Of a stretch of DNA of 64,000 nucleotides, positions 59,076 through 63,050 are shown one piece after another. The translations under genes and the position numbers were made by a program. Within the stretch, counting starts at the first letter, position 1. Every line of letters begins with the position of its first letter. The stretch covers positions 2,418,001 to 2,482,000 of the forward strand of contig NZ_AP019309.1 of the NCBI RefSeq assembly GCF_003925875.1, in the 5' to 3' direction. The notes under the pieces are model-generated. The model saw only the letters and a program-made list of their open reading frames with translations, did no database searches and was not told the DNA's origin. This stretch comes from Intestinibaculum porci (GTDB lineage: Bacteria; Bacillota_I; Bacilli_A; Erysipelotrichales; Coprobacillaceae).

Positions 59076-59354
59076 CTATGCTTGCTCCTCTCTTGTTTTT
59101 TTGGTTTCTGAAATAATAGCTTCGAGCATTCTGGTGTTCCTTCTTCCAAGATGTGCTTTGACTGTATTGTGAATTTCATAATCATCACTAAACAGCAGAT
59201 AGGAGAAGTTCTGCACATAATGATCAATTAGAAAGTAAAACTGATCATTAGTCATGCCGTGGCTCTGGTAGAGGCCGATCGCAGAACGAAGCTCCTCAGT
59301 AATGACTTTTCGGGTTGAAGGGTAATAGATAATTTCATCAAGTGTTTTAATCAT
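59076..59354 (-). CDS. Helical accessory protein of the ExeA-like transposon module
   Basis: 92 residues, mostly helical (KTLDEIIYYPSTRKVITEEL, then LGRRNTRMLEAIISETKKT). It begins with ATGA overlapping the stop of the ATPase remnant (59351-59354) and ends just before the coiled-coil gene. No family recognised. The tight overlaps show that the three frames were one operon. Confidence 0.55.
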   Translation of the reverse strand: MIKTLDEIIYYPSTRKVITEELRSAIGLYQSHGMTNDQFYFLIDHYVQNFSYLLFSDDYEIHNTVKAHLGRRNTRMLEAIISETKKTREEQA

Positions 59355-59790
59355 TCCAATTCAACCTCCTGCTGTGCCATCAGAATCGTATCTGTTCCGA
59401 TAGGCTTTTCCTTGCGATTTGCGCCCTCAATAAGGGCCTTTTCAAGAATATTGTTCATCCGTCTTACGGAGCCGTTTCTGATTTCCCAGGCGGCGTTAAT
59501 AGCTTCAGGAGAAAAGACTGGCTCACGGCAGCCGCATTCCTTGAGGCAGTGCTTCACATAGGCTTCGGCCTCCTTTTTCTGAAGCCTCTGCATATCGTAA
59601 TTAATCACAACGCGCTGTCTGAGGGCATCATGCACTCTCTTGCCAAGAATACCGTTAAAACCTGATTACCCAACGAAAATAAGAATCATTCTGTTCTTGG
59701 AGTCAAAGTTAAAATTCAAAAGCATCTTAATGTCATGAAGAATAGCATTGTGTAAATACTGTGCTTCATGAATATTCTCCGGGTTTAGCA
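59351..59790 (-). pseudogene. ExeA/TniB-like AAA ATPase, C-terminal half only
   Basis: Reading from about 59790, the frame shows NPENIHEAQYLHNAILHDIK, a DSKNRMILIFVG strand, then a TAA at 59666-59668 where relatives have Gln, and continues VHDALRQRVVINYDMQRL and GSVRRMNNILEKALIEGANR. These match the second half of ExeA-type AAA ATPases used as target-selection subunits by several transposons. The Walker A half is absent: the frame runs into the repeat array at 59788. It is therefore both truncated and interrupted. Confidence 0.75.
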
Positions 59791-60201
59791 CCATGTATCG
59801 CATGTTGAGCACCAGTGATATTACGGTAAGCACCACTAGCCGGTATCATCAATGACACCATGCATATTGATATCAGCACCACTTATTGCATTCATGACAC
59901 CACCATTATCATGTTTGGCACCATTAGGCTATGTCATCAATAGCACCATACATATTGAAGTCAGCACCACTTGTTTCACACTTGGAACCTGTACTCTCAT
60001 ATTGAGCACCACTGACCTGTATCATCAATAGCACCACATATATTAGATCAGCACCACTAGTTGCATAGACAGCACTACCATTATCATGTTTAGCACCTGC
60101 TATCTATCTCAGTAATAGCACCATCAGTATACTTACTAGCACCTGCTGTTTAATTGGCAGCACCAGCAGTCTTATTTAAAGCACCAGTGAAATCCTTACT
60201 G
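59788..60201. repeat. Ordered 21/25-nt array with an 88-nt higher-order period
   Basis: Nineteen units begin with GCACCA or a one- or two-base variant, all in one orientation, at 59788, 59809, 59830, 59855, 59876, 59897, 59918, 59943, 59964, 59985, 60006, 60031, 60051, 60072, 60093, 60118, 60139, 60160 and 60181. Steps are 21 nt, except every fourth step, which is 25 nt (one step is 20). Units at matching places in the groups of four resemble each other: the 25-nt ones end in ATCATCAATA, the next contain CATATTGA, the next CTTGTTGCAT, the next CCATTATCATGTTT. This is a higher-order repeat of about 88 nt with roughly 4.5 copies. It ends 100 nt before the istA start. Confidence 0.9.
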
Positions 60202-60300
60202 ATGCCTTTTATTTTGCTTTTTTCTCTTACCAAATTGCTTTTCTTTACTATCATATACTTGTGGAATTATCCACATGTATATGAAAGGAGGCATTTCTAA

Positions 60301-61864
60301 ATGTCTAAAAAGATTAATGTGCGTACAGTTCTCAAAAAGCACAGACTGGGTCTCAGCGAAAACAAAATTGCTCAGACATGTCATATGTCAAAGCATTCTG
60401 TTAAGGCGGTTCTTGACAGATTAAGGGATATTGAATTTGATCTCGGCACCATTGATAACTACAGTAATGATGAGCTCTATTCCATGTTTTTCCCAACTAA
60501 GTACGAAAGCGAAAATTTGTATTTTAAAGTCAACTATGATTATGTTCACAACGAGCTCAAAAAGCCTTCGGTTAACCTTAGAATACTATGGGATGAGTAT
60601 AAAGACTCTATTCCAGAGGGCATGTATCCCTATAGCTATCCTTCTTACTGTCGAGGATATTCTGATTTTGTGAATATCAATAATCTTACTAACCATATTG
60701 AACATAAGCCAGGTGAAACTGTGGAAGTAGAATGGAGCGGAGATCATATGCATTATGTGAATGAAAATTGGTGAATTAGTCACTGTGCATATCTTTGTTG
60801 CCTGTCTTCCCTATAGTCGCTATGCCTATGTTGAACCCACCCTTGATGAAAAGATGAACACCTGGATAGCTGTAATGTGAATATGCTGGAGTATTTTCAT
60901 GGAGCGCCTAAACGGATTGTTTGTGACAATCTTAAGACCGCAGTTGTATCCCATCCTAAGGAAGAGGAAATTATTCTTACAGACCAGTATCTTGATTTTG
61001 CTGAATACTACTCTATGGCAATCATGCCGGCAGCCGTAAGAAAACCGAAGCAGAAAGCATCAGTAGAAAATACTGTTGGCAATATTGAGACATTCATTAT
61101 TGCTAGGGCACGTAATATTACATTTACCTCTTTCAATCAACTTAAGCTTTATGTTATGGAGCGGTTCCAGAAATATAATGATCAGCCATTTCAGAAGCGT
61201 GATGGCTCAAGATCATCTGAATTCGAAGAAGAAAAGACTCGCTTCAGCCGCTTCCTAATATTCGCTATGAGATCGCAGAGTGGACTTATGGAAGAAAAGT
61301 TAACTTTAATAGTCATATTCAGTCCCTTATCAATACATTGGTAAATCAGTTGACGTTAAAGCAGGAACTGAAACTCTCTCATTCTTTTATAAAGGGAAGC
61401 GAATTGCTACACATCCTTTATTTCTTGGTAACGTCAAATATAAATACTCTACCCAGGAGCAGCACATGCCTGAAAAGTTTAAAAGAATGAATATGGAATG
61501 GGCTGAAAAGATCGGTCCTAATACTTATGAAGTTATAAATCGAATCTTCCTAAAAACAAAAATCGAAGAACAGGCTTATAATCCAACATTGGCTGTCCTT
61601 CGTTTAGGCGGTTCGTATTCCAATGAACGACTGGAAAATGCCTGTGGAATTGCACTTCGCAGTTTCATTACTCCCCGTCATAAACATATTAGGGATATTT
61701 TGGCTTCTAAGCAAGATCTGGCAGAAAAACAATTAAAAAATAAAACTATTGATGGCGTGGAATCCCATGATGCATCACTTGATGAAAACAAGGGACACTT
61801 AAGAGGCAGCGACTATTTTAAAAACATCGGTCAAAACAGCAATAAAAACGGAGGAAAAGACTAA
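60301..61864 (+). pseudogene. istA: IS21-like IstA transposase with several frameshifts
   Basis: Starts at ATG 60301 after AAAGGAGG. The HTH start (LGLSENKIAQTCHMSKHSVK) and the rve-type core are present in pieces: EVEWSGDHM (first Asp), IVCDNLKTA (second Asp), KASVENTVGN (Glu). Frame changes occur near 60765, 60855, 61240 and 61345. The end, from 61466 (EKFKRMNMEWAEKIGPNTYE, then RLGGSYSNERLENACGIAL), is intact and typical of IstA. The intact protein would be about 510 residues. It cannot work in this state. Confidence 0.85.
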
Positions 61865-61866
61865 TT

Positions 61867-62182
61867 ATGATTAACGAAGAGACAAAAACTAAACTTCAGG
61901 TGATGGGAATGGAAGAATTTGCAGATGGTATTGAAAGTCAGCAGCGTGCTGGTACATTTGATGCAATCCCCTTTGAACAGAGATTTGATAATCTTGTGGA
62001 TTATGTTTATGAAGCCAAATATCAGAAAAAAATTGAAACTCTTAGAAGAAGAGCAAAATTAAGATTTCCTAGCGCAGATGTGCGAGATATCTATTATGAG
62101 GGTCGTGCGATCACTAAAGAATTAATCGCGAACTTAAGCACATGCAACTATATGTTTTCTCATATTGATATTAGTATTGAAG
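61867..62182 (+). pseudogene. istB: IstB helper ATPase, truncated by an IS1595-like insertion
   Basis: Starts 2 nt after istA with GGAGG upstream. It encodes only the N-terminal IstB domain (FEQRFDNLVDYVYEAKYQKK, then LSTCNYMFSHIDISIEG); the AAA core is missing. The last codons before the TAA come from the IS1595-like end that begins at about 62183. The rest of IstB must lie beyond the window, if it survives. Confidence 0.8.
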
Positions 62183-63050
62183 GACGTGTTGTTAACAAAT
62201 AAGTGACTTTCACATATAAGCTCCGTATTTATCCTTTTCAAGCGATGTATTGAACATCAGGATATATGTATATTTGCTAAAATATATAGTACCTGGAGGT
62301 ATTAATATGGAAATTCAAAACATTGCTGCTAACTTATCTAATATTAAACTAGATCAATTTCAAATTGAACAGATTCTTGATATGGTTGAGGAGTATATTG
62401 AAGCTAATGAAACTGCGTCTACACCTATCATAGAGCATTGCCCAAAATGTCCTGAAAAACATCCTAAAATGATCAAAGCAGGACACACAAAAAGTGGCAA
62501 GCAAATGTATAGATGTAAAAGCTGTAATAAACGCTTTGTAGCGGATACCGGTCAATTAACTTTCTATTCACATCAGAGCCTTTCAAAGTGGAAAGTTGTT
62601 CTTAAAGATACACTCAACGGTTTAGCTTTACGCGAAACTGCATTCAAAATCGGTGTGCATTATGTAACTGTATTTAGAATGCGTCATAAGCTACTTCATT
62701 TCATTGAAATGATCCTAGCTAATGATTCTGTAGGTGATGTAGCTGAAATAGATGAGAAGTACATCCTGGCGAGTCATAAAGGGACCAAGCTGGAAGGCGT
62801 TGATCCTCGAAAACATGGATCAATAGCACCGAAACCAGGCATAACTGATATTCTAGTATGTATTATGACCGTAGTTTCCCGAGGCGGAAATACATTTATT
62901 CACACCTATAATACCGGTCGACCTACTGACGTGAATGGCTATGAATTTTGTCAGCATATTGACAAAGAAAGCTACTGCTTTACAGATGGTATCAATATTT
63001 ATGACTGGAGTCTGAAAAAACGAAATTGCGGCGTAAAGCATCTAAAACTC
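62183..63050 (+). mobile_element. IS1595-like element, copy 1, interrupted by copy 2
   Basis: The left end begins GACGTGTTGTTAACAA and reads inward to AGTGACTT. The body carries an ISXO2-type transposase up to codon 248, where the sequence changes to the end of copy 2 at 63051. The remainder is not in the window. Confidence 0.75.

What the first reader, a model, noticed from the sequence alone, without database searches (positions are those of the whole stretch)
59788..60201. A 19-unit array with a strict 21-21-21-25 rhythm and an 88-nt higher-order repeat
Nineteen GCACCA-type units follow one another without spacers. Nearly all steps are 21 nt, close to two turns of B-DNA, and every fourth step is 25 nt. 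Units in the same phase of the four-unit cycle share extra sequence, so the array grew by duplicating an 88-nt block, as satellite higher-order repeats do. It is not coding (25-nt steps break the frame) and not CRISPR (no spacers). It lies between a truncated ExeA-like ATPase and an IS21-like element. Possible roles: a multimerised binding site at a transposon end, a protein-nucleation or partition-like array, or a selfish short repeat. I know no described element with this layout.
Basis: partly seen in the sequence, partly recalled or inferred. Interest (0 to 1): 0.85.

Follow-up and report, generated by a model that had tools for sequence, protein, structure and literature searches.

The report
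Overgrown IS21 transposon end, 19 repeats
The 19-unit array is the left end of a decayed jumping gene of the IS21 family, in which the usual cluster of about five presumed transposase-binding repeats was copied over and over; it is an extreme case of a known kind of DNA end, not a new kind of element.

Summary
In detail: 19 AGCACC units at window 59787-60200, nearly all steps 21 nt, every fourth 25, with self-match at 21 and 88 nt that 2000 dinucleotide shuffles never reach. The array is part of an IS21-family insertion sequence: it starts 18 nt inside the left tip (TGAATATT, 59769) and ends about 100 nt before a frameshifted istA. The element continues past the window; two IS1595-type copies interrupt istB, and the right end (three units) ends at window-equivalent 65221. 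Of 37 IS21 relatives tabulated, 36 have the same tip upstream of istA, and most have several units at 21-22 nt in between, many with one longer step. Two of them and a same-genus copy have five units with steps 21-21-25-21, which sum to exactly 88 nt. So the 88-nt 'higher-order repeat' is one ordinary left-end cluster duplicated about three extra times. Tip to istA is 139-217 nt in relatives, 532 nt here. By homology the units are IstA-binding sites. Unit cores diverged less than spacers between in-phase copies, suggesting selection after duplication. No similar expansion was found in 316 order and 392 phylum genomes. Interest is modest.

The parts
59769..59786 (+). Left tip of the IS21-family element (TGAATATTCTCCGGGTTT), 18 nt before the first unit
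   Evidence: Same tip (TGAATATT or TGATTATT) and, in several relatives, the same 18-nt offset to the first unit; inverted counterpart at the right end, TGATTATTCTCGCGTAAA
59787..60200 (+). 19 subterminal repeat units (core AGCACC): the expanded left end, presumed IstA-binding sites
   Evidence: Unit map and autocorrelation; homologous 5-unit cluster in the same-genus copy L055 and in L085, L093
59829..60116 (+). Region of the 88-nt higher-order repeats (21+21+25+21 or a rotation of it)
   Evidence: TRF period 88 at 59829-60065; four 25-nt units, starting at 59829, 59917, 60005, 60092
60250..60285 (+). Hairpin just upstream of the istA ribosome-binding site
   Evidence: RNA fold of 60250-60305, z -5.5 against shuffles; hairpins at the same place in the relatives folded
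60301..61864 (+). istA (IS21 transposase), broken into at least three frames
   Evidence: NF033546 matches to two fragments, E 4.2e-11 and 5.5e-28; ORF fragments
61867..62202 (+). 5' part of istB (helper ATPase), interrupted by IS1595-type insertions; the rest lies beyond the window at window-equivalent 64656-65090
   Evidence: NF038214 E 6.7e-6 and PF01695 E 4e-4; continuation read in L104

Best explanation
The array is the left end of an IS21-family insertion sequence, now decayed. Each AGCACC unit is a subterminal repeat of the type that the IstA transposase binds. The closest relatives by core and rhythm have five units with steps 21-21-25-21 (88 nt over four steps). Here that 88-nt block was tandemly duplicated about three extra times, plus about two single units, by slippage or unequal recombination between the direct repeats. 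By analogy with IS5376, the outermost two units would serve catalysis in the paired-end complex, and inner units next to the istA promoter could also be bound by IstA and repress istA. Shown here: position, homology of layout, block length, broken istA, interrupted istB, a right end with three units. Inferred: IstA binding, the duplication mechanism, any regulatory effect.
For: (1) Tip, offset, units, istA in the same order as in relatives, several with open istA frames. (2) The same-genus copy G001:C239 (L055) has tip TGAATACT and 5 units with steps 21,21,25,21 next to an istA leader 85% identical to the window's; L085 and L093 have the same rhythm. (3) 21+21+25+21 = 88, the observed higher-order period. 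(4) The spacing persists although the core changes between subgroups (GCACC, GATCC, GATAC, GGAAA), which points to protein sites rather than coding sequence. (5) An inverted right end with three AGCNCC units lies after istB. (6) In-phase copies differ at 15% of core and 43% of spacer positions; Fisher p 5e-4 on departing cells. [quoted passage not shown]).
Against: No binding was measured. No target-site duplication is visible (...TGCTTCA before the left tip, CTGAGCTC... after the right tip), and the rest of the ExeA-type gene is not seen on the right flank, so the insertion site looks rearranged. The phase assignment of the outer units is a judgement. The core test assumes that in-phase units are true duplicates, and its cells are not independent.
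Confidence: 0.93

Rival explanations
1. The array is a decayed coding region: 21-nt units as seven-residue repeats (G-A-x-x-x-x-x on the minus strand), as in the long heptad-repeat protein gene at 819-823 kb of the same genome.
For: The minus strand of most units reads G-A heptads, and the genome's real heptad gene gives GCACC units at the same spacing.
Against: The 25-nt step recurs at the same place and size in IS21 left ends of other genomes; the frame breaks once per 88 nt; relatives keep the spacing with other cores; the same-genus copy lies at the same place next to istA.
Confidence: 0.03
2. The array is the IS21 left end, and its expansion was selected: extra left-end sites titrate IstA or tighten repression of istA, lowering transposition (a refinement of the best explanation, not exclusive of it).
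For: Cores conserved over spacers after duplication; IstA binding occludes promoter regions in IS5376 (PMC10122671); only the left, promoter-side end is expanded.
Against: The element is broken and no second copy of its istA was found in this genome; no other large expansion was found; core conservation could also reflect copying between units.
Confidence: 0.2
3. A host-used array (partition-like or nucleoid-protein site) that happens to sit at an IS.
For: Direct repeats at two helical turns are seen in such arrays (general knowledge).
Against: The layout is explained by the IS21 end; among family and order genomes searched the array was found only here and, in short form, next to istA or as an apparent solo end in the same-genus genome.
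Confidence: 0.02

Closest known systems
IS21-family terminal inverted repeats with multiple direct repeats (IS21, IS5376: L1-L2, R1-R2)
   Same: Element layout (tip, subterminal direct repeats, istA, istB, inverted right end); repeat spacing of about two helical turns (23 bp in IS5376, 21 here)
   Different: IS5376 has two repeats per end (PMC10122671); relatives read here have roughly 3-6 on the left; this copy has 19, with duplicated 88-nt blocks, and is inactivated
Ends of Mu and Tn7
   Same: Several transposase sites per end; IstA resembles MuA and TnsB (PMC10122671)
   Different: Other families, far fewer sites, less regular spacing (general knowledge, not tested here)

Membership tests
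IS21 family insertion sequence | istA transposase gene | tested here: met
   NF033546 on two fragments, E 4.2e-11 and 5.5e-28, below the curated cut-off because each is only a piece of the broken gene; 52% identity to relatives with open istA frames
IS21 family insertion sequence | istB ATPase gene downstream | tested here: met
   NF038214 E 6.7e-6 and PF01695 E 4e-4 on the 5' part; 3' part read beyond the IS1595-type copies
IS21 family insertion sequence | Terminal inverted repeats with multiple internal direct repeats | tested here: met
   Left TGAATATTCTCC...AGCACC x19; right, reversed, TGATTATTCTCG...AGCTCC, AGCACC, AGCACC
IS21 family insertion sequence | Short target-site duplication (5 bp in IS5376) | tested here: not met
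   No repeat between the two flanks. This is a property of the insertion site that is lost by later rearrangement, and the site looks rearranged, so I still file the element as IS21 on its genes and ends
IS21 family insertion sequence | IstA binds the repeat units | not testable with these tools
   Needs a binding assay
CRISPR array | Conserved repeats separated by unique spacers of near-constant length | tested here: not met
   Contiguous units with sequence shared by phase
Decayed heptad-repeat coding gene | A reading frame that runs through the repeats, or breaks unrelated to the repeat rhythm | tested here: not met
   The frame is lost at the 25-nt step of each block, a step shared with other IS21 ends

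The most novel reading that the evidence does not exclude
The expanded left end was a working regulatory device: extra IstA sites next to the istA promoter acting as a sink and repressor, kept by selection before the element died.
Probability: 0.18. Interest if true: 0.5.

Novelty: new variant of a known kind. Interest (0 to 1): 0.3.

Why it matters
It explains a striking pattern with an ordinary mobile element, and shows that an IS21 end can grow by duplicating a whole cluster of sites. The 21-21-25-21 spacing recurs in relatives from other orders, and the spacing outlasts changes of the core; that is a testable prediction about how IstA subunits pack on DNA beyond the two repeats seen in the IS5376 structure.

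Tried and rejected
Coding heptads: plausible at first, since the genome carries a true G-A heptad gene whose GCACC spacing matches the search pattern; rejected on the frame breaks and the IS21 homologues. Viral contigs: 56 stretches matched a peptide pattern, none encodes a relative. Plasmid collection: IstA relatives are common, but the left end itself has no match. The first autocorrelation used mononucleotide shuffles; repeated with dinucleotide shuffles. The pattern scans use the GCACC core and fixed spacing, so expanded ends with another core or spacing would be missed. Literature searches found no report of such an expansion, in open-licence papers only.

Full report
Observation. The window holds 19 units with core AGCACC at 59787-60200. 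The steps are 21,21,25,21,21,21,25,21,21,21,25,20,21,21,25,21,21,21. Against 2000 dinucleotide shuffles, self-match is in excess at 21 nt (z 6.4), 88 nt (z 10.4) and 175 nt (z 7.5), and no shuffle reaches these values. Tandem Repeats Finder independently reports period 88.

What the neighbours are. To the right is istA of an IS21-family element, broken into at least three frames (60301-61864), followed by the 5' part of istB (61867-62202). Two IS1595-type copies in inverted orientation follow; the second was not scanned against a family library but reads almost the same protein as the first. In L104, taken from the same genome, the rest of istB reads on after them at window-equivalent 64656-65090, and then comes the right end. 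Read inward, the right end is TGATTATTCTCGCGTAAA-AGCTCC with two AGCACC units further in, at steps 21 and 23. The left tip is TGAATATTCTCCGGGTTT-AGCACC, starting at 59769. So the array is the left end of this element.

Relatives. A scan of genome contigs with an IstA alignment gave 46 loci. Of the 37 that I tabulated, 36 have a TGAATATT or TGATTATT tip upstream of istA, 139-217 nt from it. In most of them several units at 21-22 nt lie in between, many with one longer step; in a few my motif list picked up only one or two units, and a few loci are near-copies of each other. The core differs between subgroups (GCACC, GATCC, GATAC, GGAAA and others) while the spacing holds. In L085 and L093 the steps are 21,21,25,21. 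The same-genus genome G001 has a copy with tip TGAATACT and five units with steps 21,21,25,21, next to an istA leader 85% identical to the window's; the contig ends there, so its istA is not seen. Those four steps sum to 88 nt. The 88-nt higher-order repeat in the window therefore has the length of one ordinary left-end cluster, and 19 units are five, plus three further blocks of four, plus about two. Tip to istA is 532 nt here.

How special is 19. A pattern scan with this rhythm and the GCACC core hit only this array (three places) and the G001 copy among 316 genomes of the order, and only this array among 392 genomes of the phylum. The scan cannot see other cores. A second locus in G001 (L017) carries six or seven units with a two-unit, 42-nt pattern and no istA beside it, which looks like a solo or shortened end. 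So repeat growth at these ends may have happened more than once in this genus; I did not settle this.

Selection. I grouped units by phase and compared copies. Core positions differ in 15% of in-phase comparisons and spacer positions in 43%; counting departing cells, Fisher p is 5e-4. This fits sites kept while spacers drifted, but the cells are not independent, and copying between units could contribute.

Mechanism. For IS5376, IstA needs two direct repeats per end for integration, binds them as a tetramer across two ends, and its binding occludes promoter regions of the ends (PMC10122671). By homology the window units are IstA sites. The simplest account of the excess is tandem duplication among direct repeats, tolerated because the outermost units suffice. 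A regulatory benefit is possible and untested.

Rivals. A coding origin was the strongest rival, since minus-strand units read G-A heptads and the same genome has a true heptad-repeat gene with matching spacing. It fails on the frame break at every 25-nt step, a step shared with IS21 ends in other genomes. CRISPR is excluded by the lack of spacers.

Taxonomy.

Verdict. Confirmed observation, ordinary class, unusual size. Interest 0.3.

Noticed in passing
window 60250-60300 and the same place in L063, L065, L068, L085, L091, L101: A hairpin sits between the array and istA. In some relatives its stem takes in bases of the ribosome-binding site, and its 5' strand holds a -10-like TGTAAAAT or TGTATAAT. 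This would suit protection from transcription reading in from outside, as known for IS10 (general knowledge); not tested.
   Followed up: partly
L017 1380-1640 (G001:C310): A solo array of six or seven GGTGCT units with a 42-nt two-unit pattern, preceded by three GCACC-type units in the other orientation, between two unrelated genes and without istA: possibly a shortened, non-autonomous relative.
   Followed up: partly
G000:C1:819358-821811 (L002-L010): A long heptad-repeat (G-A) protein gene gives GCACC units at 21-nt steps by coding alone, a false friend for this pattern.
   Followed up: yes
window 62220-64253: Two nearly identical IS1595-type transposase genes in inverted orientation inside istB, the second running past the window's end.
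   Followed up: no
window 59351-59768: ExeA-type ATPase remnant on the minus strand, ending near the left tip of the IS21 element; the missing part is not seen on the right flank.
   Followed up: partly
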